In this document: positions 34,301 through 54,687 of the stretch, one piece after another | Position numbering within the stretch: the first letter of the stretch is position 1 | How the letters are laid out: each line of letters begins with the position of its first letter | Assembly: GCA_019096065.1 (NCBI GenBank) | Contig: JAGUCH010000009.1 | Coordinates: forward strand, 6,148,001-6,212,000 | Source of the DNA: Paracyclopina nana | Lineage: Eukaryota > Arthropoda > Copepoda > Cyclopoida > Cyclopettidae | Reading direction: 5' to 3' | DNA: 64,000 nt | The notes under the pieces: generated by a model | What the model was told of the DNA's origin: nothing | Databases searched by the model: none | What the model saw: the letters and a program-made list of their open reading frames with translations, nothing else | Made by a program: the position numbers and the translations under genes

Positions 34301-37300
34301 TTCGGCCACAATGATGTTGAGGTGGCCAACAGCTTGACCTTGAAGGCCAGTCGATGCTACCGCATGCAAGGCCGAACGGCCTTTGGACTTGGCCCCATGG
34401 CCTTGGAAGGCCAAAATGAGGCCTTTTATCCACTTGGCCCTGGCCTTTGTAGGAGTGAGGATTGGCAGTCGGCTGACAATGTTTGGCCTCAAAATGGCGG
34501 CATGCAAAGCGTCGAAGGCTGTGGCCTTCGCTGCGATTCCACACCTGGCTGCACGGCCTTTGATACCTCTGACTATGACAGAAAGGCCAAAAAGTTCAAG
34601 TGTTGGCTACATGGCATCCAGGCCGAAATTGAACTGGCCTCAAGCATCGAAGGCTCCATGTGCTACAAGATGGCAAAGGCCATGAAGGCCATCAACAGTG
34701 GCCTTGTTGAAATCGGCTCTGGCGCTTGCAGGGGCCCAGGTTGGCAGGCCCGTGGTTGGCCTTTGATCAAAGGCCCAAAAACCCTAATGGAGTGTGGAGA
34801 GCTGTGTGCAAGCACTATGGGCTGCACGGCCTTTGACCTTCGGCCTTTGGAGTCGAAAACAGCCTTTGATTGCACCCTCTTTGGCCATGCTGATGTGGAG
34901 CCGGCCTCTGGAGTGCCAGGAACTTGCTACAGGGTCACAGCCAGCTTTGGCCTTGCCAAGGCCAAAAAAGGCCAGGCCAAGGCTGAGGTGAGGAAGAGGA
35001 AGTATGTGGTGCCAGACTTTGAGGAGCCCACAGTCATCGAGGAAGATGAGAGTGCTTACTACCAAGAGGAGCCTCTTTTCCAGCCTCCACCAAAGGAGGT
35101 GAGGTCAAGGGCTCACATTGACAAGATCCTCGGCCTTGCTGAGGCTGAAAGTGACCTTGGCAAAGCGACCTTGAAGAGCCTCAAGAATCTGTACGAGACC
35201 TCAGTGGTGCCACTGGAGTCAACTTACAAGTACAAGGAGTTGAGTCATAGGCACTTTGGTGACCCCGAGATCTTCTCCAAGCCTTTGATTGTCCTTATGG
35301 GGCCTTGGTCTGGAGGCAAGTCCACCATGATCAATTACATCCTGGGCAATGAGTTCAACATGAATGCCATCAAAACAGGTGATTGAATCGAGAAAGCGTG
35401 CGTGTTTGTTGTTGTTTATATGCATGGCGTGCCGCGCCGTGACGCGCGCACTGCCAAAGGTAAACAAAGCAGTTCATTGGCTATTCCTCGGTCTCCCCGA
35501 TTCAGATTCAATTTTTAATGGTTTTGCCAACCAACTTTTTCCCCAACACAAACGAGGCTTTCAGGTCATGCAATTTTAATGGGCGCCAAAGCAGAATTCT
35601 TTAAACTTGCACGAACTCGATGTTTTGAAACAATTTAAAGAGCAACTAATATTTGAGAATCGTTGACTTGGACAGCAGTATTCGCTTGTCATCTTTCATC
35701 TTTAGTTTCAGCTCTCGATACTGAAATTAGTCAAGACATGAGTTGAACTCATCTTTTGATGTACGTCTCAACTTACTGATTTTTTTTCATTGAAGGAGCT
35801 GAGCCGTCCGAGGGATTCAACTTCAATATAGCCATGTATGGCAACATCGAAGAGGAGATTGAGGGCACTGAGCTGGCTGCTGAGTTCACATTTTCGAGCC
35901 TGCAAAAGTTTGGCCAGGAATTTTTGACCAAGCTGAGGGGCAAAAAGATGCCAAATGCTCTGCTTAAAAAGGTACATCATCATCATAAGATGGAGGCAAA
36001 GAACTCTTTGAGGCCAACGAAGAATCAATGCTTGAGCATCCATAATGCTTGACAGGCTGCTTCCGGAGTAGTGGAAAGTTATCTTCTCCAGTAGCCTGTT
36101 AGGCGTTGTGATTTGCTCATAAAAATCATCGTTCATCCACCTCTGAGAGAGAATCAGTCCAATCAAGGTTTCAGTTTTGAGCGCTGAAAATTAAGAAGAG
36201 AGATGACAAGCGAACTTTGCTGTGCAAGTCGTCGATTTGCAGATATTTGTTTGCCAAAGCATTGTGCAAAAACATCGTTAAAATTCAATTCTCCTTTCCT
36301 TTTTCAAGGCCATTTTTGCCGAAATCCCCGGATTATTGGAGCATGGAAGCAAGAAAATTGATCGACGCTATCCCTTCAATGATGCGTGTCAGTGGTTCAT
36401 TGACCATGCTGATCTGATCCTGCTTGTCTATGACTATGCCAAATTGGACATTGGACCAGAAGCTGAGGCTCTCCTGGACCAGCTCAAAGGCAGAGAATCC
36501 CAAGTGAGCACTACGATCTATATCAAAAAGGCTTTTGGAATAAGTGACCTCGCTACTGCTCGGCCGTGAAAGTTTCACTCGGCTGCTACTAAAAAAGTCT
36601 TGCTCTTTCCAATTAGGTGAGGATCATCTTGAACAAAGCGGATGAGATCACTGCCACTGAGCTGCTCAAGATCCAAAACAACCTGGTGTGGAATGTGTCT
36701 CCACATATGGCGAGTCTGGAGCCTCCAAGGCTCTATGCTGGATCCTTCTGGAGCCACCCCTACAAACCAGGAGCCCCCAAGGAACTGCTGCAAAACCAGG
36801 AAGCCTCCCTGCTCAGGGACATCAGGGATGCCATCAACAAAAGGGTGGAGAACAGGATTGCCACAGCAAGAAGATTTGCGGTAACAACCCTGGAAACATA
36901 CTAAATAATTTATTAGGTTTAAAAAGTAACTTAAAATAAGCTTGCCTGCCTTTAAGTAAGCTAAGGCAATTGAAGCCAAGTTTCTGCAACAGAAAAGCTG
37001 GCCTTGGAGGTGATTTAGAATGAGAAAAAATGACTTTTATTTAATTTTTAACTAGCATATTAATCGAGATCATCAGTGGCACTGGGGGGTTTACCAGAAG
37101 CTCCTCCTGGGCCTGGGGGCGGGGCAGCCCCGCCTCCCATGCCTCCCATGCCTCCAAATCCAGGGAAGCCTCCTGGCATTCCAGACATCCCAGGCATTCC
37201 TGGCATCCCAGGCATTCCTCCACCTCCCATTTTGGATGCCAGTTTGGTAATGAGTTGCATCACCTTTGGATTGCCTTGGTACTTCATCAAATTGGCAGGA

Positions 37301-40300
37301 TTACTTGTGATGTCAGCGAAAGCTTGGGCCACCTCCGGATCATTCAGAGCACTCATCAACTCAGGGTCGCTGAAGAGGCCACCAAGGCCACCTGGTAGAC
37401 CAGGGCCATCTTCAGGGTCATTGTTGGTGCCAAACTCAGCTTGAGCTTTGGCAGCTCTCTCATTGGCCTCTTTAGCCTTTCGCACTCGCTCCTGCCTCTC
37501 CTTGAGCTCCTTCTCCTCCTTCTTGATTTGCTTCTTCCTCTCATGCGCTTCAATCTTCTTGGCCTGAAGGAAAATTAATAATTAATAATTAATAATTAAG
37601 TTGAAAAATTGCCAATTTGGAGTGTCTAATTGGTGGGACACAAAGCTTTTGAAATTATGTCAGCGTACTTTTTTGCTGGGAAATTGTGATTTAGGCTGCA
37701 TTCGAACTGATTTGTTTTCCATTAGAGACCTCTTTGAAAAATATGCCATGTTAGCTCAACAACTTTTGAGCATGACTCTGAGAATGGCCATGTTGTTTTA
37801 AGTTCTATTCAGGAGCACGCTAAGATAACTTACCAATTACAGTTTATAGATTCAGTCAATTTCACTTCAATTAAAGCCATCAACTTTGTATGGAATGAGC
37901 AAAGCACAATTCTAGGCAGGAAATGCATGACACGTCATAGGCTAATATCTTCTGTGTCTTTTATCGTGGCATGCTTATTATGGTTGTTATTAGAGAAACT
38001 TCATAATAAGAGAGCGGCGAACACTCATCGCGCGCTTTTCAGTTGACCGCAAAGGGAAAGATTGGCGGAATTTTGAGCAAAAACTCACTCAACCCTTCGT
38101 AATTTTATTGTCAACTGAAAATGGCTCAAGTAAACCCAATCTTTAGCTTCAATTTAAAGCCTATTCCTTGTGTAGTTATGGTTTACAACATGTAAAATGA
38201 ACAACTACTCATAGGTTTTAAAAATATAGTAAGCGATATTTAATGCTGTTAAAAGGGCAAATTGTTAATTTTTCCCTTCATAAAATGCCTCAAAAATGCA
38301 TGGCTCGCTTCACGATTCCCTTTAGCGAATTTCGAGAACACGGGAACTCTCAGTACTTTTGTGTCCGCCGATCTCTTACTATGCAGTTTCTCTAGTTGTT
38401 ATCGCTTCTTATTTACTGTCATCGCAACCTCATCAGTAAATAAGAACCGATAGAAACCGCAACAATGCTACGACCAAAGACACAGAAGATAATGAGCCAT
38501 ACAATAAAAAAAACTTAAAACGAAATAATTTTTAAGTTAAATAGAAAAATAACCAATCAAGAAGCTTCTAATAGTTTATACATTTTGCTTTTTGAATGAC
38601 GTCAGCGTACTTTTTAGCTTGGAAATTGTGATTTATGCTCAGTTAGAATTGATTTGTTTACATTTAGAGACCTCTAAGACAAATAAGTCATGTCCTTTTC
38701 ACAACTTTTATGAAGAAATGGAACCAGACGACGACCACAAGTAGGTCACGACGCCCGATCTCTCTTTTTTTGGCTCTACGCGCACGCCGTTGGTATATGT
38801 TACTTCTACCTGCATTTTTACTTCAGTATGCTAAAGTTTGCTTCGCTCACTTCACCCTAGCAAATAAAGTATACTCAAACCCGTTTCATCACTCTTCTAC
38901 TCATAAAACTGTTCGAACCCAGTTCTTCACCTCCATTTCATCATAGTTGGCTCCCACGGAATTGTATCAAGATCACGAGTGGTAGTGAAGTGCTTTTTCC
39001 AGAGCGGGGGAGAAATAATATCATCTAAAGAAGACCTAGCCAGTCTAATTTGGATCGACTCCCTCAACAAAGTCGTACAGTGCTCCATCACTACATCTGA
39101 ACCATAAAGGTAACCTTGCCTTAGACGAGATTAGCTACCTCAAAAAAGGACACTTCCGGCTACGCGCCCATATAAGTTAAAAGAGGCCCTTAATTCAGAG
39201 TCCCGTGTTGTGACTTACAGCTCAAACAAAGCCCTTAAGGCAATCTGGGCGGAGCATAGAAGTTCTTTCCTATCAACAACTTACTTTCACGTACATTAGG
39301 TTCAAAAATGGCTGAATCTGGTGCTCATCATCATGACCACCACGAAGAGACTTTAGAGAACGCCATACAAAACGAGCTACTAGGCATTGCAGCTCGCATG
39401 GCCGTGCCTCCAAATGAAGTTTCACAAGATCGCAGAGCAAAACTTGCCACCAACAGGAAAATTGAGAAGCTTGAGAGAAACCTCCTCAAAATGCAAGAAA
39501 ACGTCGACACCAGCTTCTCAACCATCACCAGAGCATTGAATGATGTTCATGAGTCAAACAAGGCCATTCTACAGCGCATGGAACCATCTCCGGACTCACC
39601 TCCACAAGACCAACCTGAGCCAAGAAGATCTCGCCGATCAAGTGTGGCATCCTCCATCAGAGGAGACTCTCGAGCACCATCTCCTCATGCCAATGCTGGA
39701 GTAGCCCCACTCTTCCAAAGCTTGGCTTATGGAACTAGCAACCTTCTCCAAGGGAAAACTCATAAATATGAAAAGTCCCTTAAGGATCTGAAGGAATATG
39801 CTCGTCACAATTCAGTCCAAAACAGGGTGGAAATGGAACGAGATATTATCGCAGCAGAACTCAGGAACGACTTCCTTCAACTCATTCCAAAACTCATCCA
39901 AACGCAAAGAATTCCATGCCTGAAAACCGTACCTTTCATTCCCGGATCTGATACAAGAGAGTCCAACGCGCTTTTTGTCCAACTAAAAAGAGAAAACTTG
40001 AAAGAGTTCCCGAGGTTGAGCAAGGCAAGCCCAGATGTGAGGCACATTATTGAAGCTATGGCTGAGCGACACGCAGGCGAGCTAACAGCCAAGCAGTTTG
40101 CCAACCTCATTATACACCAGACTAACTCTCAACTCAAGGACACTTTCACCAACATTTTCAAGAGTCATGATGATATTAATGAAGCTATCAAGGAAATCCT
40201 TGAGAGCTATTGTTGCAGCAAGAGACCAGACGAACTCTTGTGCGAGTTTTATGACTCCAAAATTGACACGAAAAAGGTCGATGACTCGCTAACCAAGATA

Positions 40301-46300: not shown

Positions 46301-49300
46301 AACACTATTTTTGTAATTGAAGATGTGGCTTGCAGGAACGGACAAGCTTTGACACTGTGTGAAGCTGCCATTCCGGACAATTATGAAAAGTACACTTCCC
46401 TTCGAAAAGTTTACTCAGCAGAACTCACTACTATCAAAGACAACTTCCCAAATGGAAAAGAGTTAATCCAAGAGTTGAATCAAGCTGATTGGTGCGATCA
46501 ATATCAAGAAAGCAATGTGGATGAACTCTTTCTGGACCACCCTTTACAAGAAGTGAAGAATCTACTAGAATCTACTCCACCCAATATGGAGCTGATCTTT
46601 GACCTTCTTCCTAATCTAGTGAATGATTATGTCACAGCGGACAATATTATTCAGAGATTGGATAATAGTGCAAAATCTATGGATGGCAACCAAATTTGCA
46701 TTTGTGATGAAGAAGAAAAACAAAACTCCGCTGAAATCAACCCTCCTACTACAGTTATTAATGGCTCTATACCCACTAAGACAAAAAGGCCAAAGGTGAT
46801 AAAAACACTTCCAGCTGATAAGCCATCAATCAACATCACTGAGATTTTTGATAAGGCAAAAGAAAAACTGCCAGATTGGATCACTAAACATACAAATCCT
46901 AAAGTGCTGGATATTATATTTAGTATCATAGGCGGTATATCTGGAATTGTCACCTTGATCACAAGCCTTTTCCTCGTCATAAGAAGCTGTCGGAAAGATG
47001 GATTTATGTGCCATAAAAGAAAAAGATTTGTTGCTTTTAAAGTACCTGCCAACAAGGCGAGTCCCAAAACTACCAATCGTAATGAAACTGAAATGGCCAC
47101 TTTTCTCCCATCAAAAAAGGACTCTTCAAGCGAGGGGGAAAATGATAAAAGTGATGTCTATTTTGTGACTCAAGATTCAAAATCAAAGAAACAAATGGAC
47201 AATACAAAACCTTCAAGACCACCAAGAAGAAGCCCAAGAGCCAAAAGATCTGTAAAAGTGATTGATGTTGCTCATGTCCATAGCATTGATCCCAGGAGAC
47301 ACAGCAACTATTCCTGTTACACAAGTGAGGATGAAATTCAAGCAGCAAGCAAAATTCACCCCTACTATGACTAATGGATATGCAACATCAACTTTTCGCC
47401 TTCAAATACAGTATAGCCAAGCATTTTACATCTAGTTCAACACAACAGCAATTTTAATGAGCCATTATTGCACATTAAGCACGAAGAAGATACACTATCA
47501 AATTGCAAAACCTCAGTCTCATCTACTACCAAGAAGAAGCAACATGAGTCCACTCCAATTCTTCGTCATCACCTTAAGATTGATTTCTGCCATAGAAGCC
47601 AAATCAATCTCTGAGATTGAATTCCTCAATAACTATGTCCTCAATCAACAAAGACTAACCACCTGTCTTGCATCCGAAGCTGAACTCAAGGAAAACAACC
47701 AGGAATTGAAGACCAAAATTACCACCTTGACTGATCAACTTGACAAGTGCCAAACAACCTATGCTGCCATGATAACAGAAGAGAAGGAGAATAACAAATC
47801 TACTTATCTGGATCCAACGGCAGACACCGATCTTGAGGAGCAAGAGGCTCTTTTTCAAAACATAAGTGTGGCCTCTCAAGATTTGATCAATGCTTCATCC
47901 AGATTGAATCCCAATCAAGCTCTCCGTGATGTCCCTTGTCAAAGAAAAGTCATCATCCTGGAAAAACTCTATGATTATGCCAAATCCAAGGTTGAGGATA
48001 TGCTAATTACCATGTCAGCTCAAGAAGAACGCCTCAATACAGAAATCCTTAACCTCCAAAAGGATCTATCCAATCAAAAGGTCCTCAACATTGAGCTCCA
48101 AGCTACAATTGCCTCACTAGAAGATGTCAAGACTGGTACGGTCCCCATTTATGACGAATTGATTGGAACCCCTGGATTCGACACCGCTCTGAGAAACAAT
48201 CCCACCTTGACAATGTGGCTTACCATCCCCACCTCGATCTTAGTCATCCTGGCTTTGGCATTGTTCACATATCTCCTCCATAAGTGCTCAGAGAACAACT
48301 TTTTCCTTCTGAGACAGCTTGGAATTAGAGCTAGAAAATACGTGAAACGTCAAGACAAAAAGTTGAGATCCAGAATCCAAGTACGACTTACCAAGATGAG
48401 GAAAGCCAAGGACTCCATGGAAAATGAAAACTTCGACGAGGATATTCTTGACCCTTCGAAGGACATCTTAAAGTCTGTGGAGAAAAGCATTATCAAAAAT
48501 GAGCGTAAACTTGAGGCCATGAAGCACAAAAAGGCCAAGCTCATGGAGATGATGCCAAAACCTGGAAACTCACCTTCAACTCTACCCAACACTCCCACTA
48601 TTCACGTCGAAACCGCAGTAGAAGTTCATGTCGCTGATGACAACAATTCTGACGACGTTGTCGAAACCGCAGTAGAAGTTCATGTCGCTGATGACAACAA
48701 TTCTGACGGCAACAACGTCGAAGATGACGACAACATTGAGGTGAACACTTCTTCCACTGAGAAAATCGTCGCTGATGTCACTGCGGCCTCCCAAGTTGAA
48801 AAGGCCCAGTGTAAAACTGATTAAAATGCATTTGGAATCACTTGCATCCACTTTCGAATAAAATTAACAAAATCACTTTGTTTTGCCATGCTTTAGGAAA
48901 ATGTCAACAAAAATTAAGTTGGTCGGAAAAAATAGCTCGATCTAGACACTTCATTTTCCAACCTGATTCTCCATGGATCCAAACGCCAAAATCCTCACCA
49001 ATTGGCGCCCTCGATGGCGTAATGGCATTCTCTGATTATATTTTCGCAAAATCTATGAAAATGATCAAAACCATCAAAGCAAGAATTTTCCCAAATTAGC
49101 CTTAAAAATAACTCCTCGATTCACACGGCTTGATGATTAGTAAACAACAACAACTGTCATGTGGACCGTGGGAAAATTCATCCTCATTCATCTATCAGCT
49201 GATGTTTTGACAAGTCATCTCAGGCCTACTTCCGGACGCCATAATAAGGAAAGTAAATCTGTCAATTATAAGGAATCTTCAAAAATCAGTCACATCACAC

Positions 49301-52300
49301 CTTTAAAAAGTAATTGCCATATATTGGTCATTTGCTGGCTTAACATCATAACAATTATTAAACAAAGTGACTAGATTAAAGCTTCCTCTTCTGTAAAAGG
49401 ACAGCCATTCGAGCTGACCTCCTCTCTTGGGCCATCTTGGCCCTAATGGCCATCCTCCGACTCGGGACTTCCATTGGAGTTGGGGCAACCTGGCTGGAAG
49501 AATCCAGGCCCCCCTTGACGAAAGGGCTGCTGCCCTTGACCCTCCTGGTCACCGACGACGCCATTGCCATTACTAGCCAGTCCAGCCGAGGCCACTACCT
49601 CGCCGTTATCGCCGACAGCATCATAAATGCCATCCTCGAGGTTGACATCCTCAAAAGGTGCTGATGGGGTAGGCCAACTCGATTGACCTGACTCCACATC
49701 TTCGGGCCATCTCGGCAAACGGGGGAGGATGAGGTCACGGACCAACACTGTCCTCTCTGTGGAGCCTGGCGGGTGGAAAACGAGAGAGAGGTACTCGCCA
49801 GACAATACCTCTCTCACAAACGCGTCATTCCCATCGAAGTTCGTGGCTAACAAGTAAGGCAGGACCACGCGCACCAAATTGGCCAACGTCTGAGCAGCCT
49901 CCGTAGGCTTCGGCCTCACTGGCAACTGCTCCTTACCGCACATGTCATGAAAGACATACCCCAGGAATGGTCCAAACGTCAGCGGGAAGAACACAGCTGC
50001 CAGGAACTTGACAAAGATGTCAAGCCACACATTCCGGAGAGCCTTGAAGAACACAGGAACAGTGAAAGTGAAAGCTGCCTTTAAAATTCATATCAACTTA
50101 CTTTACGAGTGAAAAACCCGTACACCATGTACGCGAGGAAGACGAGGAAGACGAGGACCATGTACACCATCACCACCAGGAAACCGAGCTCACCAATCAA
50201 CAGTGACCCTACACCTTCTTCAGGCTGACACATATTAGCCTTAAGCCAATTCGGATCCACAAACTTGGACACCTCATTCCGGATCTTGCCGACCTCCGAT
50301 GCCACCTTACTGAGCCGGTACTCGTTCATACGCTGAACTGACGACATGACGCTGAAAAGTCAATGATTAAACAAAGTGATTGACAGTAAAGCAAAACTAG
50401 CAAACTTAAAAAGGCTGAGGAAACATCTATTTACAAAAGCTTAACAGAAAGGAAAAAGAGGGAAGAAGAAACAGAATGGAGAAACTGGTGGCGAATAGGA
50501 CATGGTTTGTGACACCACCAGGATCATCAACACCATAGCCATCAATCCGTATCGCCTGGTTGACCCTGACCAGACGAGGACTCCATAAAAGAGGCTGGCA
50601 AGGCCTCCAGCCAGGCCTACAATGATGCCAATCAGAGCCAAGATCAGCCTTCTCAAAAGTCTTCGTCGCCATCTCCCAGCTTCCACTCTACTTGGCCCTC
50701 CATAGTAATCCCGCCATGCCATCCGATAGTCAAGTGATGCCAAGGCCAGAATGGCCATGGCAAGGACCCAAAGAGCCCTTAGACGAGGTGACAAGCCCGA
50801 CGCAGCCTCCGTCAACGCCTCCAAATCCACAAGGAATCTCTTCAAAAGGCGAATTACTTCTTGACTAGAATCGTTGGCCATCCAGAATTGGAGGCCATGG
50901 GCAATAAGCTCCGTTATGAAATCAGCCATCTACAAATCAAATGTTTCCACAGCCCTGAAGAAAATGCTAAAGTGTAACTTACCTTGACAAAGACTCCGCA
51001 AAAAACCGTAATGGTGACTGACCGGGAATGAAAATTCGAATGACCTGGCTTATGAATGCTACCCAAAAAAGTTGACCTCATGTCCCTGCTTCTCAACCTC
51101 ATGCAAGAGACAGGTTAATACAGCCCATTCAGCCCGCTACAGGTCCACACTCCTGACTTCACCTGTTGCCACCACAAGTCTGTTCAGCTATACGTGCACT
51201 CCTAAGCCGAATTCAAGCTAGTTGCCTGACAACAGCTACCAGACAAAGATGCATCTTTTGCAACTATTGCTCGAAAGCACCAATCTAATCATGCAAACAT
51301 GGCTTACCTTGGCCTCGTTCATTTGCATGATCATTGGAGCGTTTACGATCGTGGCCAAAATTATCTCATTAAGAAAAATGAAGAAAACTCAAATCATTCA
51401 TGTGACCATTGGCATCTCTAAAATCTTGAAAGCCTTCAATTTAGTGACATTTGTTGAAGCTTCATCAAACTCAACCATAGAATATCACGGAACACTTTGT
51501 CGCATCATCATCAACTACTCTTTCTGCAACAACTATTTTCACTTCCTTATGGATTCGTCAATCAAAAAGATCAATTTCATTTGTGAACCGCACTCAATTG
51601 AAGAACTCATTCTGGACATTGATGAATTAAGCAGATTGAAGTCCATTGAAGACACAGTACAGAAACTTTACAGGCTTGCCTTCAGGGGAAACTCCACTAC
51701 TAACCGCCAAAGAGGACTCGCCCGACATGAAGCAAGAAACAGGTTTTAATACCAGCCCACAACGAAATCTACAATAAGTCCACATGGAGAAGATCAACCC
51801 AAAAACATCACTAACGATTTATTCATCATCTTTCTCATTCTCAAAAGTATCATACTCTAATGATATTTCATCACACAACATGACTTCCCTGGAAACAACT
51901 TCCACTTGGTCATCTTCATCACCCATATTTGAAATAGTAATCTCAAGACTCTCTCTTGTCTCCATCATAATGCCTGATCCGGATTTTGAAGATGACGCTG
52001 CCCTTATTTGGTTGGGGTCCTCTAAAACCAGATCACGGAAATATGACAAGTCAATGTGAAGATTCTTCTCAAGAGCCCTCCGCACTTTTCTCCTGAATAT
52101 TGGTGATCTCTTCAAATACCGGCACACCTCCTCGTACTGTCTCCTTTTCAACGACAAAATGATCCTTTTCAACGTATTCACCACTGATGCGGCCTCCAAC
52201 CTAAAATTGACACTTCTCTGGTCTACCCCATCGCCATTCCCCAGTTCGTCCATGGGCAAACGATGGATCATCATAAGAAGATCGACATAGGCAATGCAAA

Positions 52301-53106
52301 TCGACACCTAAATTGGAAAAATCACATTATTATAGACGTCGTGATTCATTTCTTCAATCATACCTGACTGGTCCTAGCCTTCATCGTGGAAGGCTAGCTT
52401 CTTCTTCCGGGGGGATATCTATGAAGAAATGGAACCAGACGACGACCACAAGTAGGTCACGACGCCCGATCTCTCTTTTTTTGGCTCTACGCGCACGCCG
52501 TTGGTATATGTTACTTCTACCTGCATTTTTACTTCAGTATGCTAAAGTTTGCTTCGCTCACTTCACCCTAGCAAATAAAGTATACTCAAACCCGTTTCAT
52601 CACTCTTCTACTCATAAAACTGTTCGAACCCAGTTCTTCACCTCCATTTCATCATACTTTTAAGCATGATCATGAGAATGGCCTCGTTGTTTCAGGTTCG
52701 AGTGAGGAATCATGCGAAAATGGTAGACGTCTACTTGTCCACGATGAACAAGAAGAAGGGCATGTTTGGCAGTGCCAAATCTGTCGCAGAGGACATTGTC
52801 AACTACCCTGAAAAGTACCACATCTACGATGGAATTTCAACCATGACAAACATCTCCAGGTACGACCTGCCAGACCCCCAAACCTACAAGACCTTTTTTG
52901 GCCTTCATCCCCTTTCCGAATTCCCCACATTGCAATCCACATGTACCTACTTCAAAGGCTGTCCCATCAACAAAATGGACCAGGCCATTTCCTATGAATT
53001 ACCCGAATTGCTCACTGACTACAGAAGGAAAAAGCATGCCAAGACCATTAGTGGTAATGATAATAGCAAAGACGAAAAACCTAAGAAGAATGCCAGCAAA
53101 AAATGA
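25400..53106 (+). CDS. SRL: Sarcalumenin-like dynamin-superfamily protein with eleven PAN/apple modules
   Basis: Thirteen exons: 25400-25511, 26152-26394, 28253-28540, 28621-29253, 29573-29878, 30737-31093, 31342-31689, 32308-32652, 33153-35378, 35796-35971, 36309-36503, 36617-36880 and 52696-53106, summing to 1,967 codons without a stop. Residues 1-34 are a signal peptide. Eleven PAN-like modules follow (consensus C-R-G-P-x-W-Q-x3-W-P, GCTAFDL, LFGH, CYRM; six Cys each): exons 2, 5, 6, 7 and 8 one each, exon 9 six. Exons 3-4 encode an acidic then Lys/Glu-rich stretch with five EKKEKKPHDNL repeats. The C-terminal part is the sarcalumenin/EHD G domain: P-loop GPWSGGKST (about 1594-1602), NKAD (1749-1752), RYPFNDACQWFIDHADLI, and the final exon with [20 protein letters not shown]. 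Vertebrate sarcalumenin is a calcium-buffering protein of the sarcoplasmic reticulum lumen, so a muscle ER role is inferred. The last intron is 15.8 kb and contains ST13's last exon and an LTR element. Confidence 0.9.
25915..26120. repeat. AT-rich minisatellite in sarcalumenin-like intron 1
   Basis: Degenerate copies of TTTTTCAAAAAATGCGTTTT or TTTTCAAAAAATGATTTTTT, ending just before the acceptor of exon 2. The open frame across it (25901-26206) is the repeat read as Phe/Lys. Confidence 0.8.
26560..27190. repeat. Irregular GGGCTAATTTTG-type repeat in sarcalumenin-like intron 2
   Basis: Recurring GGGCTAATTTTG, GGGCAAATTTGGGC and AGGGCTGTCTAAGGTTC blocks, with a longer period of about 170 bp (compare 26560-26720 with 26720-26900). 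Non-coding. Confidence 0.7.
27191..27894 (+). other. Remainder of sarcalumenin-like intron 2
   Basis: No exon seen. Frames at 27104-27564 on the minus strand cross the repeat and have no domain. Confidence 0.4.
27895..28105. repeat. Minisatellite, 19-20 bp unit (AAGGCCATAATGGCCAAGA)
   Basis: Copies of AAAAGGCCAAAAAGGCC grade into perfect AAGGCCATAATGGCCAAG units near 28020-28090. GGCC palindromes recur every 9-10 bp. It lies in intron 2; the GGCCAAAAAGGCC core also appears in exon 3 (codons for Lys-Ala-Lys-Lys), so the array may have been seeded from coding sequence or the reverse. Confidence 0.85.
28737..28895 (+). repeat. In-frame 33-bp coding repeat in exon 4 of the sarcalumenin-like gene
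   Basis: Five tandem copies of an 11-residue unit EKKEKKPHDNL, the last with Asn for His. The DNA copies are almost identical, so copy number is probably variable between individuals. It continues into irregular EKKEKKEEK repeats to about 29130. Highly charged and likely unstructured or single-helix. Confidence 0.92.
29390..29535 (+). repeat. CTGAAA-hairpin repeat in intron 4
   Basis: TCAACGCACTTTTGAATGA, then the hairpin TTTCAGTTCACAAAGCTGAA, then CTGCACACCCAGATTTTTCT and ATCGTCA. The same order occurs at 29918-30060 in the next intron, so the two are copies of one element. Confidence 0.6.
29918..30060 (+). repeat. CTGAAA-hairpin repeat in intron 5
   Basis: TCAACGCACTTTTGAATGAG, hairpin ATTCAGTCCACCAAACTGAA, CTGCACGCTAAGATTTTTTT and CATCGTCAATG. 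It is the sister of the intron 4 copy. Further lone hairpins of this kind are at about 30548, 35705 and 36170 in the same gene's introns. Confidence 0.6.
31106..31295 (-). mobile_element. Two tandem tRNA-derived SINE heads in intron 6
   Basis: Two related copies about 95 bp apart. On the minus strand each has a pol III A-box-like GCGGCTCAATTGTTCAGG and a B box (GGTTCGAGCC in the right copy, GGCTCGAGTCC in the left). They resemble a tRNA gene but lack a full acceptor stem and cloverleaf, so I read them as SINE heads or tRNA relics, not working tRNA genes. Confidence 0.6.
31740..32170. repeat. TTTGCCCTTTTTAGTTAG-type repeat in intron 7
   Basis: Irregular copies of TTTGCCCTTTT with 5-10 variable bases over about 400 bp, degenerate at both ends. 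Non-coding. Confidence 0.75.
32700..33110. repeat. Foldback (inverted repeat) in intron 8, arms about 130 bp
   Basis: AACAATGGCGCACCCT, ACAGTTTATG, CATGGAAAGCTGAGCTTTCC, AGCTTTCCATTGGCTTGCAT and GGTTTTGT on the left (32704-32825) all return inverted on the right (32990-33108, reading CATTCGGTTTTG outward to AACAATGACGCACCC). The loop is about 160 bp. It ends directly before the T-run of the exon 9 acceptor, so the hairpin could form in the pre-mRNA next to a splice site. Confidence 0.75.
36548..36583 (+). repeat. Copy of the CCTCGCTA motif in intron 11
   Basis: CCTCGCTACTGCTCGG, then CCGTGAAAGTTTCACTCGG. This is the clearest copy: the tail contains GTGAAAGTTTCAC, a perfect palindrome around a central G. 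It fills a third of a 113-bp intron. Confidence 0.7.
37036..37041 (-). terminator. Poly(A) signal AATAAA of ST13
   Basis: AATAAA on the minus strand lies about 19 bases after the ST13 stop codon. It sits inside the last intron of the sarcalumenin-like gene. Confidence 0.7.
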
Positions 53107-54687
53107 GGAGAATGATGATGGTATCAACCAATAAAATTACTTACATTTGGAGTCACTTCCTTCAGCCACTCGTCCGCTTGCTCGTCAAAGTCGATTTTAC
53201 AGGCCAATCTCAAATCTTTGGCAGCTTCCAAGAAATTGCCCAACAGCCTGCAAATTGAATTGGATTATTCGAGCAATGCAATGGAGCTTTGATTTATCTG
53301 GCTTGAGAAATAATTCATTCATATTTTGTAAAAGAGCTTGAAAATCTTGTTGCCCAATGGTTTAAGCAATGATTTCAAATGTTAAGGTCCCAGGTTCGAG
53401 CCATGGTCACACTTCATTAACTAATAGAAGCGAAACGCAACTTATTGAAAGTTGTGTCATCCCAGGCTCTTTAATCTTCAAATGAGATCAAAAACCCATT
53501 GCATAAAAAGGGAATGAACTCATTTACTGAGAAGCTAGGCTTCGCAAGATTGCAGCATTGGGATTAACCAGTGAGCTCGACCCCTGAATTTTAGGGCAGC
53601 AGCGATATCTGGAGCGTGAAAACGGTTAAAAATCTTATTACACATTGGTTCAAGCAATGATCTCAAATAATATGGTCCCATGCCTGCTTCTAACTTAACA
53701 AAGCGATGGACAAATTATTTGAAAGTTATGTCATCACAAGCTCTGTGCAATACCCAAATGAGATCAAAAACCCAAATCATAAAAATGAATAGAACAATTG
53801 GTTTTGCAAAACTAGTTAGTTCATCGTTTGAACCATTGTAGCGCAATGGTTCAAGCGATGATTTCAGATGTTCAGGTCCCAGGTTCGAGCCATGGTCACA
53901 CCTAACTAACTAATAGAAGTGAAACGCAACTTTTTGAAAGTTGTGTCATTGCAGGCTCTGTAATCTTCCAACGAGATCTAAAATCCATTGCATAAAAAGG
54001 GAATGGACTCATTTACTGAGAAGCTAGGCTTCGCAAGATTGCAGCATTGGGATTCACCTGTGTGCTCGACCCCTGAATTTGTGGGCAGCAGCGTTATCCG
54101 GATTGATTTCGATGGCTCGATTGCAATCCCTGATGCAGGCATTTGGCTTTTTGATCTTCAAATAGCAAGCTCCTCGCTTGACGAATGGCATTGCAGACGT
54201 GGCATTGAGCTCGATGGCCTCCGTGAAGAGGTCAATGCTTCTTTGCCACTCGCCTTCGCTGAAGGCAGCCATGGCCTCACTCCGCTTGTCATTGAACTTG
54301 TCCATGTTCTCTTCGCTAACCTCCAACTCATCCGGATTGCCCATGGATTGAGGAGCATCGTTGTCAGACTCGATGACTCCTTCCATATCCAGATCAACAT
54401 CAGACTCCTCAGACTCAATGCTGGTGGGCTCTTCTTCCTCCATAGGTTCTTCTTTCGCTTTCGAGTCTTCAGTTGGTGGAGCTTTCTTCGACAAGGGTGG
54501 AATTGAACCACCAAGCGATTCCAGATACCTGAAATTGGAACAAATACCAAAAAAAAGGTGTATTTAATGCTTGGAAAACTCACTCTTTGAAAAATAAAAG
54601 GTCCTGATGGTGCAAAATGTCAGGGTTGGCCTTCAAGACCTTGACAAATGCCTGGAGCTGAGCCAAATGTTCCTTTGGAATGTTCAT
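37060..54687 (-). CDS. ST13: Hsc70-interacting protein Hip (ST13)
   Basis: Four exons on the minus strand: 54687-54584, 54528-54058, 53247-53145 and 37563-37060, giving 393 residues (human 369). Residues 1-45 are the Hip dimerisation domain ([18 protein letters not shown]), followed by an acidic stretch ([10 protein letters not shown]) and three TPR motifs (about 108-215; [58 protein letters not shown]). A highly charged helix ([19 protein letters not shown]) and an STI1/DP domain ([29 protein letters not shown]) follow. Hip binds the Hsp70 nucleotide-binding domain through its TPRs and stabilises the ADP state in the cytosol. Oddity: the Gly-Met-Pro-rich tract comes after the DP domain, whereas in human ST13 it comes before. 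The last intron is 15.6 kb and encloses the final exon of the opposite-strand sarcalumenin-like gene plus an LTR element. Confidence 0.95.
37640..37810 (+). repeat. Diverged duplicate of the region around the last sarcalumenin-like splice acceptor
   Basis: This segment (GCGTACTTTTTTGCTGGGAA ... ATTGTGATTTA ... GAGACCTCT ... CAACTTTTGAGCATGA ... GAATGGCCATGTTGTTTTAA) matches 38600-38708 joined to 52657-52715, the sequence that leads into the true acceptor TTGTTTCAG/GTTCGAG. Here the acceptor reads TTTTAAG/TTCTATT and the following exon-like part is degraded, so it is a dead or alternative copy. Confidence 0.75.
37930..38512. repeat. Inverted repeat remnant in the shared intron
   Basis: TAATATCTTCTGTGTCTTTT (near 37947) and its inverted match AAAGACACAGAAGATAATGA (near 38476) enclose further smaller inversions: TTTTCAGTTGAC (near 38037) with GTCAACTGAAAA (near 38110), and ATCGCTTCTTATTTACTG with CAGTAAATAAGAACCGAT (near 38401-38450). 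Nested hairpins of MITE type, decayed. Confidence 0.45.
38709..38945 (+). repeat. 5' LTR, 237 bp
   Basis: Ends are TATG...CATA, with a longer imperfect inverted terminal match (TATGAAGAAATGG against CCATTTCATCATA). It contains AATAAA at 38863-38868. Confidence 0.97.
38946..39307 (+). other. Element leader between 5' LTR and gag
   Basis: Non-coding leader. TGGCTCCCACGG two bases inside the LTR is placed like a primer-binding site; I cannot name the tRNA. No other structure recognised. Confidence 0.6.
39308..41200 (+). CDS. LTR element gag-like ORF (630 residues)
   Basis: Begins at ATG with a His/Glu-rich start, followed by a predicted coiled coil (about residues 40-90), a Ser/Arg/Pro-rich linker, a largely helical central region fitting a capsid, and a Cys/His cluster near the C-terminus ([10 protein letters not shown] ... 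[14 protein letters not shown]). The cluster is not the classical CCHC knuckle. Its end overlaps the next ORF in the -1 frame, the arrangement for which this family is known to use frameshifting. Confidence 0.9.
   Translation: MAESGAHHHDHHEETLENAIQNELLGIAARMAVPPNEVSQDRRAKLATNRKIEKLERNLLKMQENVDTSFSTITRALNDVHESNKAILQRMEPSPDSPPQDQPEPRRSRRSSVASSIRGDSRAPSPHANAGVAPLFQSLAYGTSNLLQGKTHKYEKSLKDLKEYARHNSVQNRVEMERDIIAAELRNDFLQLIPKLIQTQRIPCLKTVPFIPGSDTRESNALFVQLKRENLKEFPRLSKASPDVRHIIEAMAERHAGELTAKQFANLIIHQTNSQLKDTFTNIFKSHDDINEAIKEILESYCCSKRPDELLCEFYDSKIDTKKVDDSLTKIVEKARLAFPEQRNDALTKLVIDHVIPQLPSEVQKAVNLERTKIAELQKISPFVPPMDLNTFKNMVTSHPSMTKRVVKNLEAAPQAINNEHTTTASIKTGSSNHSNGHFAANNQIISEMKETNQLLMKTVAALENQPKTYPNEKGGYNRPQKSKLIVYKISDPKFSEIAAKFDNKGPLMNVLLMEIDSYERNTRKRGPKLKMLDDPHSRIPYKFDNLGRIIPENAPIDFPVFVETQPGKYRISLKTLERISISCARCGHLLCGFNAENCIYKSSTPSFNACSKCMQGFHLDHQCRAVPLN
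41176..45672 (+). CDS. LTR element pol ORF: protease, reverse transcriptase, RNase H, integrase
   Basis: 1,498 residues. In order: aspartic protease ([13 protein letters not shown]), reverse transcriptase (palm motif YSDD), RNase H ([18 protein letters not shown] region), integrase with an HHCC-type zinc site and a DD35E core ([22 protein letters not shown]), then a C-terminal tail. This domain order defines Ty3/gypsy rather than copia. An insertion of about 100 residues splits the RNase H region. The frame is open throughout. Confidence 0.96.
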   Translation: MSSSSFKLARPFPKTATVKEEISLVTFSDISLADIDTEDDDNPTISSSIEPDWLDSDAALEIASSLDYQEISQVSKVLTPDIILEGLDLPVINESPLKTALTTDFGLKVDFTVDSGAQVSILSVKTFQELPKDKYSLSNEQLTLVDVQKNEIPQYQCPIELTFKLQGFQFKHTFFIASSSNLLGLDFITTHNLQIIQQKGRTNLIISFEQRSEQKSLPSPEGLDSWASVDEIEVLPGLNEVTGTLDLPDGQYNLSIPRESPLKTVGSLSVRGGKFTTTMENKSTSRFPLSCNEIIGKVTTEDEATNQIDEETVEPTGFPCLITEEKDDRKMIIRDNHSHIDKSAVEDIISFIEKETPNLFSTHESDIGKIHEKFEIFFDIETTTEKPVYIKPYTLDPLREAQLADQLAELEKIGVLKKGFSPWAMPCFLVTKRNGTLRAVYNARELNKVTKPVKFPYKPINTIIEEISLANPKYFTTIDIASAFLSIPMTERAQKICAIVTNSGQWLPLRMIFGLSNAPSYYNYCMSRILDTADKSPCKSNFVCNYSDDVCLYSKSFELNIQQTKIILRTLYNAGIKLRPRKFQFAQKSIELLGKHLDQNGFSILPRHLSAVKNFKKPEDKHTLMSFIGLAQWNANLVYAFSEKLKPLTKLLRKDEDFAWGTEQDQAFDDIKNAIINSTTVYFVNYDEPLYLHYDSSLNAIAGYCYQIKSFSREEVSKWHEELYQEESLDSKSKLNTKHPVIPPSGKNNPGMVTLSPIDEALKQYESNLKTNNEELFIRDIRHEELDELEPISTYLQEKDKLHIICPVGFYSATLNKQQSRYTILELECLALVKSLEHFAHLLHGVPTTFVCGDNMALLWILKSSKLSPNPPPKLVRWCITISSMPFKCIFLHCQGKYNLCADAMTRNFPIVYKAVQNDGQLEPILITSPFKLGKVVTLNDLQEYLEKVYEEGFEPKFNGEQKLGTRKKDPKKTFSYIDSIPEKIQINYIGKKNPKHELAELLTLDNIAMEQEKDANIQKMRRNPPKGFAFEQNVLYKTVQNPDQSTQRSLIYIPDSLLGVLLAYLHLDCHIGGTSLARMAAMTHYHPKLFKSALNFTIQCYLCQLAKPNRLGKAKLKPISYGESPKGHTFSIDILEGYPEFYKSSKILVMIEYFTGYKIIVPVKNATGDEIAKIIEQYIIAVFSPPKVLISDGASNLVSSSKVRRLLEYYDIHPHVTMPYSPQAHSIVENAVQQVSNLIRILTNQLKLPWIKLLYLVQLSLNTRPSPRIGNISPIYAYFGVDHDRLRPVTEKDIVEPSTIKDIWKAHDAIIQEAINKNTQLKKQAREKIPGKDINYEPGTYVFMLDKRKHEKPKIWVRYHTSPYLVLKNLQNTCLLKSFNGVVFPAHKNLLKKCSPRFAELYGNLPLSVRFMLGSHFTLESLAPYMEIQKTPEFFDEDIFKPIEKGRVMTRGESKRLKEQEKAQSVNSQLPIIDQMFLDDEEEEQAMPYEPTVHFAE
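45749..47374 (+). CDS. LTR element third ORF, envelope-like membrane protein
   Basis: Starts at ATG 45749 with a signal-type hydrophobic segment ([11 protein letters not shown]), a Cys-containing ectodomain and one transmembrane helix near the C-terminus ([20 protein letters not shown]), then a basic, Ser-rich cytoplasmic tail. The layout is that of an envelope-type glycoprotein, but no family was recognised by sequence. Confidence 0.7.
   Translation: MSTRMKQLLWSLALATLLHNTSVTSTPFCKAYSIVSLSETLNQLHQLLEPLVDAISNQITDVETFAKGRIVNDKVYKLINVQDKFATSKLVCEIEKMTFIKPKGDFASVLKKIEAGVRDPPNFKFDDKKIWVNLQYDKRTDSYYFDGEPFPLYWGDNVENLSVKPTSFDENKCYRIVVPNNYDDNTIFVIEDVACRNGQALTLCEAAIPDNYEKYTSLRKVYSAELTTIKDNFPNGKELIQELNQADWCDQYQESNVDELFLDHPLQEVKNLLESTPPNMELIFDLLPNLVNDYVTADNIIQRLDNSAKSMDGNQICICDEEEKQNSAEINPPTTVINGSIPTKTKRPKVIKTLPADKPSINITEIFDKAKEKLPDWITKHTNPKVLDIIFSIIGGISGIVTLITSLFLVIRSCRKDGFMCHKRKRFVAFKVPANKASPKTTNRNETEMATFLPSKKDSSSEGENDKSDVYFVTQDSKSKKQMDNTKPSRPPRRSPRAKRSVKVIDVAHVHSIDPRRHSNYSCYTSEDEIQAASKIHPYYD
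47457..48824 (+). CDS. LTR element fourth ORF, coiled-coil membrane protein
   Basis: A hydrophobic start ([17 protein letters not shown]), two heptad-rich coiled-coil stretches, one transmembrane helix ([20 protein letters not shown]), a basic juxtamembrane stretch and an acidic tail with a direct 17-residue repeat ([15 protein letters not shown] twice). It could be a partner of the preceding ORF. Not recognised. Confidence 0.65.
   Translation: MSHYCTLSTKKIHYQIAKPQSHLLPRRSNMSPLQFFVITLRLISAIEAKSISEIEFLNNYVLNQQRLTTCLASEAELKENNQELKTKITTLTDQLDKCQTTYAAMITEEKENNKSTYLDPTADTDLEEQEALFQNISVASQDLINASSRLNPNQALRDVPCQRKVIILEKLYDYAKSKVEDMLITMSAQEERLNTEILNLQKDLSNQKVLNIELQATIASLEDVKTGTVPIYDELIGTPGFDTALRNNPTLTMWLTIPTSILVILALALFTYLLHKCSENNFFLLRQLGIRARKYVKRQDKKLRSRIQVRLTKMRKAKDSMENENFDEDILDPSKDILKSVEKSIIKNERKLEAMKHKKAKLMEMMPKPGNSPSTLPNTPTIHVETAVEVHVADDNNSDDVVETAVEVHVADDNNSDGNNVEDDDNIEVNTSSTEKIVADVTAASQVEKAQCKTD
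48825..49442. other. Element segment between the sense and antisense ORFs
   Basis: No convincing ORF on either strand. This is where transcripts from the two directions would have to end. Confidence 0.4.
49443..50929 (-). CDS. LTR element antisense ORF cluster (three frames, membrane-type)
   Basis: Three antisense frames follow one another: 50929-50441 (starts [13 protein letters not shown]; several hydrophobic helices, Arg-rich loops), 50347-50093 (starts [10 protein letters not shown]; one long hydrophobic helix) and 50054-49443 (hydrophobic start, then a polar Pro/Gly-rich tail; its first codon is not ATG). Splice-like GT and AG dinucleotides lie at their edges, suggesting one or more spliced antisense transcripts. 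Codon use looks less AT-rich than in pol. Not recognised. Confidence 0.5.
51249..51749 (+). CDS. LTR element small sense ORF near the 3' end
   Basis: About 166 residues from ATG 51249, with one hydrophobic helix near the start ([20 protein letters not shown]), then a polar region. Function unknown. Confidence 0.4.
   Translation: MHLLQLLLESTNLIMQTWLTLASFICMIIGAFTIVAKIISLRKMKKTQIIHVTIGISKILKAFNLVTFVEASSNSTIEYHGTLCRIIINYSFCNNYFHFLMDSSIKKINFICEPHSIEELILDIDELSRLKSIEDTVQKLYRLAFRGNSTTNRQRGLARHEARNRF
51819..52307 (-). CDS. LTR element antisense ORF next to the 3' LTR
   Basis: A 162-residue antisense frame, helical and charged, with an acidic C-terminus. The first codon of the open frame is not ATG; internal Met codons follow at once. 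It lies where an antisense promoter in the 3' LTR would first transcribe. Unrecognised. Confidence 0.4.
   Translation of the reverse strand: MSICIAYVDLLMMIHRLPMDELGNGDGVDQRSVNFRLEAASVVNTLKRIILSLKRRQYEEVCRYLKRSPIFRRKVRRALEKNLHIDLSYFRDLVLEDPNQIRAASSSKSGSGIMMETRESLEITISNMGDEDDQVEVVSREVMLCDEISLEYDTFENEKDDE
52420..52656 (+). repeat. 3' LTR, 237 bp
   Basis: Reads the same as the 5' LTR over its whole length. AATAAA at 52574-52579. Followed by the CTTT duplication. Confidence 0.97.
53130..53135 (+). terminator. Poly(A) signal of the sarcalumenin-like gene, on top of an ST13 splice donor
   Basis: AATAAA 24 bases after the stop codon at 53106. Cleavage 10-30 bases downstream would fall at about 53145-53165, inside ST13 exon 3 (53247-53145) on the other strand; the ST13 donor GTAAGT is read from 53144-53139. 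Confidence 0.7.
53341..54057. mobile_element. tRNA-derived SINE copies and a tandem duplication in ST13 intron 2
   Basis: Two near-identical copies, about 53345-53600 and 53838-54100, with a shorter diverged copy near 53640-53770. Each main copy has a pol III A box (TAGCGCAATGG at 53839-53849) and B box (GGTTCGAGCC at 53393-53402 and 53882-53891), typical of a tRNA-derived SINE. The right copy runs into the end of ST13 exon 2; the left copy carries a matching exon fragment (near 53555-53600) in which the donor GTGAAT is changed to GTTAAT with further mismatches, so it is a ghost of the exon end. Confidence 0.7.

What the first reader, a model, noticed from the sequence alone, without database searches (positions are those of the whole stretch)
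36617..53247. Interleaved opposite-strand genes: ST13 and a sarcalumenin-like gene swap terminal exons
On the plus strand the sarcalumenin-like exon 12 (36617-36880) splices to exon 13 (52696-53106). On the minus strand ST13 exon 3 (53247-53145) splices to exon 4 (37563-37060). ST13 exon 4 lies inside the sarcalumenin-like intron and sarcalumenin-like exon 13 lies inside the ST13 intron. All four exons keep frame, splice consensus and family continuity. Simple tail-to-tail overlap is common, but mutual exon interleaving of two unrelated conserved genes is rare. Neither gene can be transcribed fully without reading antisense through the other's last exon, so expression may be mutually exclusive or produce double-stranded RNA.
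Basis: partly seen in the sequence, partly recalled or inferred. Interest (0 to 1): 0.88.

Follow-up and report, generated by a model that had tools for sequence, protein, structure and literature searches.

The report
Two opposite-strand genes with interleaved ends
In this genome two unrelated ordinary genes on opposite strands each appear to have their last coding exon inside an intron of the other; this layout is striking but already known in animals, and most of the gap between the pieces is a recently inserted jumping element.

Summary
On the + strand an EHD/sarcalumenin-type GTPase gene joins 36617-36880 to 52696-53106. On the - strand ST13/Hip joins 53247-53145 to 37563-37060. Both junctions are GT-AG and phase 0, and both proteins stay collinear with solved relatives across them. 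Own-genome searches found no second copy of either gene. An assembly misjoin is unlikely: a decayed tandem copy of the pre-insertion sequence (37571-37826) is collinear with both flanks of the repeat between the exons, and the repeat has a matching 4-bp target duplication.

Its LTRs are identical (0/237), and I count 11 LTR pairs in the genome. Without it the introns are 1.6 and 1.9 kb.

'Rare' is overstated: non-nested intron/exon overlaps are 160 of 1,766 human overlaps in one survey, and another paper calls interleaved genes 'fairly common in metazoan genomes'. Predicted mature mRNAs barely overlap, so a double-stranded RNA switch has no support here. Expression could not be tested.

Best reading: a genuine, older interleaved antisense pair, recently stretched by a retroelement. 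How it arose is unresolved.

The parts
33153..35378 (+). SRL-like gene, large exon with repeated PAN/CRGxxW modules and start of the EHD-type GTPase domain (upstream PAN-type exons from about 26151 on not modelled in full)
35796..35971 (+). SRL-like gene, GTPase exon
36309..36503 (+). SRL-like gene, GTPase exon
36617..36880 (+).
   Evidence: EHD4 homology
37060..37563 (-). ST13/Hip last coding exon (charged linker, STI1/DP domain, GMP-rich tail), stop TAA at 37060-37062; lies inside the SRL intron
37036..37041 (-). poly(A) signal AATAAA for ST13 (second one at 36909-36914)
37571..37826 (+). R1: decayed tandem copy of the sequence upstream of SRL exon 13, with a dead acceptor (AA) and about 12-26 nt matching the exon-13 start
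37990..38398 (.). multi-copy repeat (about 405 bp, ends partly inverted; MITE-like)
38395..38501 (.). multi-copy, partly palindromic repeat (about 107 bp; MITE-like)
38511..38708 (+). R2 left part: 73% identical to R1; interrupted by the LTR element and continued after 52656
38705..38708 (.). target-site duplication CTTT, left copy
38709..52656 (+). LTR retroelement, 13,948 bp, same orientation as the SRL-like gene; protease-like, RT, RNase H and integrase-like regions in that order, further ORFs on both strands
38709..38945 (+). 5' LTR, 237 bp, contains AATAAA at 38863
52420..52656 (+). 3' LTR, 237 bp, 0 differences from 5' LTR, AATAAA at 52574
52657..52660 (.). target-site duplication CTTT, right copy
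52661..52695 (+). R2 right part, ending in the SRL exon-13 acceptor tttcag
52696..53106 (+). SRL-like last coding exon, stop TGA; lies inside the ST13 intron
53130..53135 (+). poly(A) signal AATAAA for the SRL-like gene, beside the ST13 exon-3 donor
53145..53247 (-). ST13 exon 3, donor gtaagt
54058..54528 (-). ST13 exon 2 (TPR region)
54584..54687 (-). ST13 exon 1 (HipN, ATG)

Best explanation
A genuine pair of unrelated, convergently transcribed protein-coding genes whose last coding exons are interleaved: ST13/Hip exon 4 sits in an SRL-like intron and SRL-like exon 13 sits in an ST13 intron. Each gene works by ordinary splicing. The other gene's exon is simply antisense intron sequence, ignored because its splice sites read only on the other strand (inferred). 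The layout is probably older than the local repeats: a decayed tandem copy (R1) suggests that ST13 exon 4 and SRL exon 13 once lay about 0.24 kb apart, 5' end to 5' end. MITE-like repeats and, very recently, a 13.95-kb LTR retroelement then stretched the shared introns; the LTR element alone took them from 1.6-1.9 kb to 15.6-15.8 kb. Shown: coordinates, frames, splice sites, homology, copy number in this assembly, element, TSD, tandem copy. Inferred: expression, splicing in vivo, relative dates.
For: Open frames and GT-AG sites. Pfam HipN, TPR_1 and STI1-HOP_DP over cut-off for ST13; EHD_N over cut-off and Dynamin_N at 26.9 against a cut-off of 27 for the SRL-like protein. Solved Hip and EHD4 align across the two junctions. 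Codon bias peaks in the stated frame for both exons. Own-genome protein searches: 4 of 8 ST13 matches and 3 of 6 SRL matches are the window's own exons, the rest weak paralogues. LTRs 0/237 different with TSD CTTT; 22 LTR matches at 98-100%, the window's two included, which I pair into 11 elements; one other copy has its own 4-bp TSD TAAT. R1 is collinear with the left flank (37571-37767, 73%, E 4e-25) and the right flank (37769-37814 against 52663-52708; 0 of 2000 shuffles reach the score) of the insertion. R1 was the only other match to the R2 part of the query (24 of 24 candidates scored).
Against: No transcript evidence for either junction. The 14-kb element is a near-identical multi-copy repeat, the classic place for a misjoin, though TSD and R1 argue against it. 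Sense-strand AATAAA signals in both LTRs could stop SRL transcripts early, so this allele might express poorly. The SRL upstream exons were not modelled completely.
Confidence: 0.88

Rival explanations
1. Assembly artefact: two loci were joined at the near-identical 14-kb repeat, so exon 12/ST13 exon 4 and exon 13/ST13 exon 3 do not really lie together.
For: The element has 11 LTR pairs by my pairing, LTR identity 98-100%, and what separates the exon pairs passes through it.
Against: Matching TSD CTTT on both sides. R1 preserves uninterrupted sequence that matches both flanks in one collinear run. Both halves carry parts of the same two genes, of which no second copy was found.
Confidence: 0.05
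2. Origin (not exclusive of the best explanation) by terminal-exon swap: an ordinary tail-to-tail pair suffered tandem duplication of the segment holding both last exons; each gene then kept a different copy and lost the other, which leaves exactly this interleaving.
For: The region underwent tandem duplication: R1/R2 include the start of SRL exon 13 (9 of the first 12 bases match) with a dead acceptor in R1, and R1 starts 8 bp from ST13 exon 4. Another local duplication covers the end of ST13 exon 2.
Against: No significant remnant of a lost exon 13 between SRL exon 12 and ST13 exon 4 (50 of 300 shuffles score as high) nor of a lost ST13 exon 4 after SRL exon 13 (195 of 300). R1/R2 fit at least as well a later duplication in an already interleaved locus.
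Confidence: 0.2
3. The layout is regulatory: transcription of one gene shuts the other off, or antisense intron/exon pairing makes dsRNA.
For: Geometry: each primary transcript is antisense to the other's last exon. Opposite nested pairs in C. elegans are on average less co-expressed than neighbours (PMC12274878, passages).
Against: Predicted mature mRNAs share at most some 20-30 nt (from poly(A) signals). In the same C. elegans study co-expression is 'not rare' and a nested gene induces its host. No expression data here.
Confidence: 0.08
4. This allele of the SRL-like gene is impaired: the recent sense-oriented LTR insertion stops transcripts at LTR poly(A) signals, so the far junction is rarely made.
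For: Sense AATAAA at 38863 and 52574 in the LTRs; reading on past the exon-12 donor gives only VTTLETY and a stop. LTRs identical, so the insertion is recent.
Against: Exon 13 is open, conserved and codon-biased, though that only shows past function. That introns with LTR elements are often spliced normally is recalled, not tested.
Confidence: 0.12

Closest known systems
Non-nested intron/exon overlapping gene pairs in vertebrates (PMC2151771, Table 1)
   Same: Two genes overlap without nesting and without exon/exon overlap; for a convergent pair that by logic makes last exons interleave (my inference).
   Different: That class mixes orientations and is not limited to coding exons; here both interleaved exons are coding and conserved.
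'Nested and interleaved genes' of metazoans (PMC2291194, one passage seen)
   Same: Interleaved gene structures, named as fairly common and as not predictable by the gene finders of that time.
   Different: The passage names no pairs; its counts and cited sources were not seen.
Opposite nested genes (C. elegans, 567 pairs; PMC12274878, passages)
   Same: Opposite strands; transcription of one runs through the other's exons.
   Different: There the whole guest gene sits in one intron; here the sharing is reciprocal.
ST13 / Hsc70-interacting protein (Hip)
   Same: HipN, TPR, charged linker, DP domain, GMP-rich tail.
   Different: Only four coding exons here, the last 15.6 kb away in this assembly.
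EHD / sarcalumenin GTPases
   Same: EHD_N, dynamin-type GTPase, following helical region.
   Different: A long series of PAN-like repeats in front; no EH domain reported by Pfam at E 0.001.

Membership tests
Interleaved (non-nested, intron/exon) antisense gene pair | Genes on opposite strands | tested here: met
Interleaved (non-nested, intron/exon) antisense gene pair | Last exon of each gene inside an intron of the other | tested here: met
   (as gene models; not by RNA)
Interleaved (non-nested, intron/exon) antisense gene pair | No exon/exon overlap | tested here: inconclusive
   Coding exons do not overlap; 3' ends are only predicted from AATAAA and an overlap of some 20-30 nt of UTR is possible
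Interleaved (non-nested, intron/exon) antisense gene pair | Both genes transcribed and spliced | not testable with these tools
   no RNA data on hand
ST13/Hip | HipN, TPR and STI1/DP domains in one protein | tested here: met
   solved Hip 4j8d/4j8f are the best PDB matches
ST13/Hip | Hsp70 binding | not tested
   needs biochemistry
Sarcalumenin (EHD-related, no EH domain) | EHD-type N segment and dynamin-type GTPase | tested here: met
   EHD_N 32.4 against cut-off 21.5; Dynamin_N 26.9 against 27.0, just under; EHD4 E 2.6e-49
Sarcalumenin (EHD-related, no EH domain) | Closer to sarcalumenin than to EHD proteins | tested here: inconclusive
Ty3/Gypsy-type LTR retroelement (38709-52656) | Two LTRs with TSD, protease-RT-RNase H-integrase order | tested here: met
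   the protease and integrase matches are below Pfam cut-offs; that this order marks Ty3/Gypsy is recalled
Ty3/Gypsy-type LTR retroelement (38709-52656) | Envelope gene | tested here: inconclusive
   two long ORFs after pol have no Pfam match

The most novel reading that the evidence does not exclude
The two last exons became interleaved by tandem duplication of a tail-to-tail exon pair followed by reciprocal loss. The decayed exon-13 start beside ST13 exon 4 would be a fossil of that process, a neutral route by which convergent genes exchange terminal exons.
Probability: 0.2. Interest if true: 0.5.

Novelty: new member of a known kind. Interest (0 to 1): 0.3.

Why it matters
It is a clean, coding-level case of reciprocal gene interleaving with a partly readable local history (tandem copy, MITE-like repeats, a very young LTR insertion). 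It is useful for asking how such pairs arise, how both genes tolerate antisense transcription and a sudden eight- to tenfold intron expansion, and as a test case for gene finders, which by one paper could not predict interleaved genes (PMC2291194).

Tried and rejected
Misjoin at the repeat: considered first and made unlikely by TSD and R1. Second copies or alternative last exons elsewhere: none found (4 of 8 matches are window exons at 69-99%, the other 4 at 23-29%; 3 of 6 are window exons at 85-98%, the other 3 at 25-32%, presumably EHD-family, not tested). A simple inversion as origin: on paper, inverting the ST13-exon-4/SRL-exon-13 segment gives a non-functional order, so set aside by reasoning only. 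Remnants of lost terminal exons: not found (six comparisons, shuffles reaching the score 50, 14, 260, 147, 195 and 20 of 300; the 14 of 300 case is an AT-rich intron match, the 20 of 300 case a 30-base match of the reverse strand; neither is counted given six tests). R as a dispersed repeat: rejected (24 of 24 candidates scored, one relative of the R2 part), with R1, scored only 40 of 303 candidates. Rfam on the window: nothing at gathering thresholds. A one-line register check ('first12', 3 of 12) was off by one base and is replaced (9 of 12). (TPR_1 family in the own genome) served to place the window in its genome. Literature: eight searches. The three terms 'interleaved genes', 'opposite strand' and 'intron' together gave 0 papers. 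No paper on an SRL/ST13 interleaved pair was seen in those listings, but no search named that pair. Also seen without changing the verdict: PMC8493703 (abstract and outline), PMC3689595 (passages), PMC12167791 (passages).

Full report
What is there. On the + strand the exon 36617-36880 ends in a gtaaca donor and exon 52696-53106 follows a tttcag acceptor; on the - strand exon 53247-53145 ends in gtaagt and exon 37563-37060 follows ccttcag. Both introns are phase 0. The ST13 coding model is complete: ATG at 54687, exons 54687-54584, 54528-54058, 53247-53145, 37563-37060, 393 residues, one stop at the end. The last five SRL-like exons (33153-35378, 35796-35971, 36309-36503, 36617-36880, 52696-53106) give one open frame.

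Identity and continuity. The ST13 protein has HipN, TPR_1 and STI1-HOP_DP matches over Pfam cut-offs. Solved Hip (4j8d) aligns over residues that cross the exon 3/4 junction, '[15 protein letters not shown]' against 'EVQPRAQKIAEHRRK'. The + strand protein has PAN matches, EHD_N over cut-off and Dynamin_N just under it (26.9 against 27.0 bits). EHD4 (5mtv) aligns from before to after the exon 12/13 junction. That it is a sarcalumenin rather than an EHD protein fits the absence of a reported EH domain, but I could not test it against a sarcalumenin sequence. Codon log-odds, trained on the other modelled exons of both genes, are highest in the stated frame for both terminal exons (SRL 0.231, the other five frames at most -0.323; ST13 0.694, the others at most 0.181).

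Copy number. The assembly has 91,952,342 bases in 10 contigs. The ST13 protein gives 8 matches: 4 are the window exons (69-99% identity as aligned), the other 4 lie elsewhere at 23-29%. The SRL C-terminal part gives 6: 3 are the window exons (85-98%), the others 25-32%. No retrocopy or alternative terminal exon was found.

Between the exon pairs lies an LTR retroelement at 38709-52656, in the same orientation as the SRL-like gene. Its two 237-bp LTRs have 0 differences, begin TATGAAG and end ATCATA, and are flanked by CTTT on both sides. Pieces of its pol ORF match protease, reverse transcriptase, RNase H and integrase families in that order (protease and integrase below cut-off). Six further ORFs on both strands are 95-99% identical at protein level in the one other copy I compared. 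The LTR has 22 genome matches at 98-100% identity, the window's two included, which I pair into 11 elements: ten with LTRs 13.6-13.7 kb apart and one 10.1 kb apart. There is also one 80% match. Without the element and one TSD copy, SRL intron 12 is 1,863 bp and ST13 intron 3 is 1,629 bp. Two further multi-copy, MITE-like repeats lie at 37990-38398 and 38395-38501.

Why a misjoin is unlikely. A near-identical repeat is where assemblies go wrong, so I tested it. The sequence 37571-37767 is 73% identical to 38511-38709 just left of the element (E 4e-25). The next bases, 37769-37814, match 52663-52708 just right of it: 0 of 2000 shuffles reach the score, and the five best-listed placements of 52657-52725 elsewhere in the window all overlap this spot. 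So R1 is a paralogous empty site, showing that the two flanks were contiguous before insertion. The R2 part of the query has one relative, R1, among the 24 of 24 candidates scored, so this is a local tandem duplication. R1 also runs into the start of exon 13 (9 of the first 12 bases match) with the acceptor AG read as AA.

What this says about age (inference). Since R contains the SRL exon-13 acceptor and R1 begins 8 bp from ST13 exon 4, the simplest reading is that the two terminal exons already lay 5' end to 5' end, about 0.24 kb apart, when R was duplicated. The interleaving would then be older than the duplication (copies now about 27% different) and much older than the LTR insertion. A more daring reading, reciprocal loss after tandem duplication of both terminal exons, is allowed but not supported: remnants of the lost exons were sought and not found.

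How it works. Each pre-mRNA carries the other gene's exon as antisense intron sequence. ST13 has AATAAA signals at 37041-37036 and 36914-36909, both between its stop and SRL exon 12. The SRL signal at 53130-53135 lies next to the ST13 exon-3 donor. With cleavage some 10-30 nt beyond a signal (recalled), mature mRNAs would overlap by at most some 20-30 nt. More double-stranded RNA would need unspliced precursors. In C. elegans, opposite nested pairs are on average less co-expressed than neighbours, yet co-expression is not rare (PMC12274878, passages). So mutual exclusion is possible but not implied. A more concrete prediction is that the sense-strand AATAAA in each LTR (38863, 52574) may cut some SRL transcripts short in carriers of this recent insertion.

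Novelty. Non-nested intron/exon overlaps are counted in vertebrates: human 160 of 1,766 overlaps, mouse 163 of 2,053, zebrafish 161 of 1,026 (PMC2151771, section with Table 1 read). I infer, not the paper, that a convergent pair in this class has to interleave. [quoted passage not shown] A Drosophila paper calls 'nested and interleaved genes' 'fairly common in metazoan genomes' (PMC2291194, one passage). [quoted passage not shown] Coding terminal exons, as here, may thus be the less usual form; I saw no count of them. I file the pair as a new member of a known kind.

Noticed in passing
window 38709-52656: The LTR element is long (13.9 kb) for its 237-bp LTRs and carries, after pol, two long + ORFs (45716-47371, 47436-48821), one more + ORF (51222-51746) and - strand ORFs (50087-49446, 50359-50093, 50929-50444, 52307-51822). 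The six of these seven compared with one other copy are 95-99% identical at protein level; Pfam names none of the five I scanned.
   Followed up: partly
window 53347-53613 and 53836-54102: A 267-bp direct repeat (90%) copies the end of ST13 exon 2 and its donor region into the intron behind it.
   Followed up: no
window 26178-34940: The SRL-like gene carries about eleven CRGxxW...CTAF PAN-like modules ahead of its GTPase domain, an architecture I do not recall for sarcalumenins.
   Followed up: partly
window 55714-56223: Peptidase_S28 match on the + strand; its presumed start near 55.3 kb would lie about 0.6 kb from the ST13 start, head to head with it.
   Followed up: partly
genome contig C9, 6119938-6133823: Another LTR pair of the same element lies only about 53 kb before the one in the window.
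   Followed up: no
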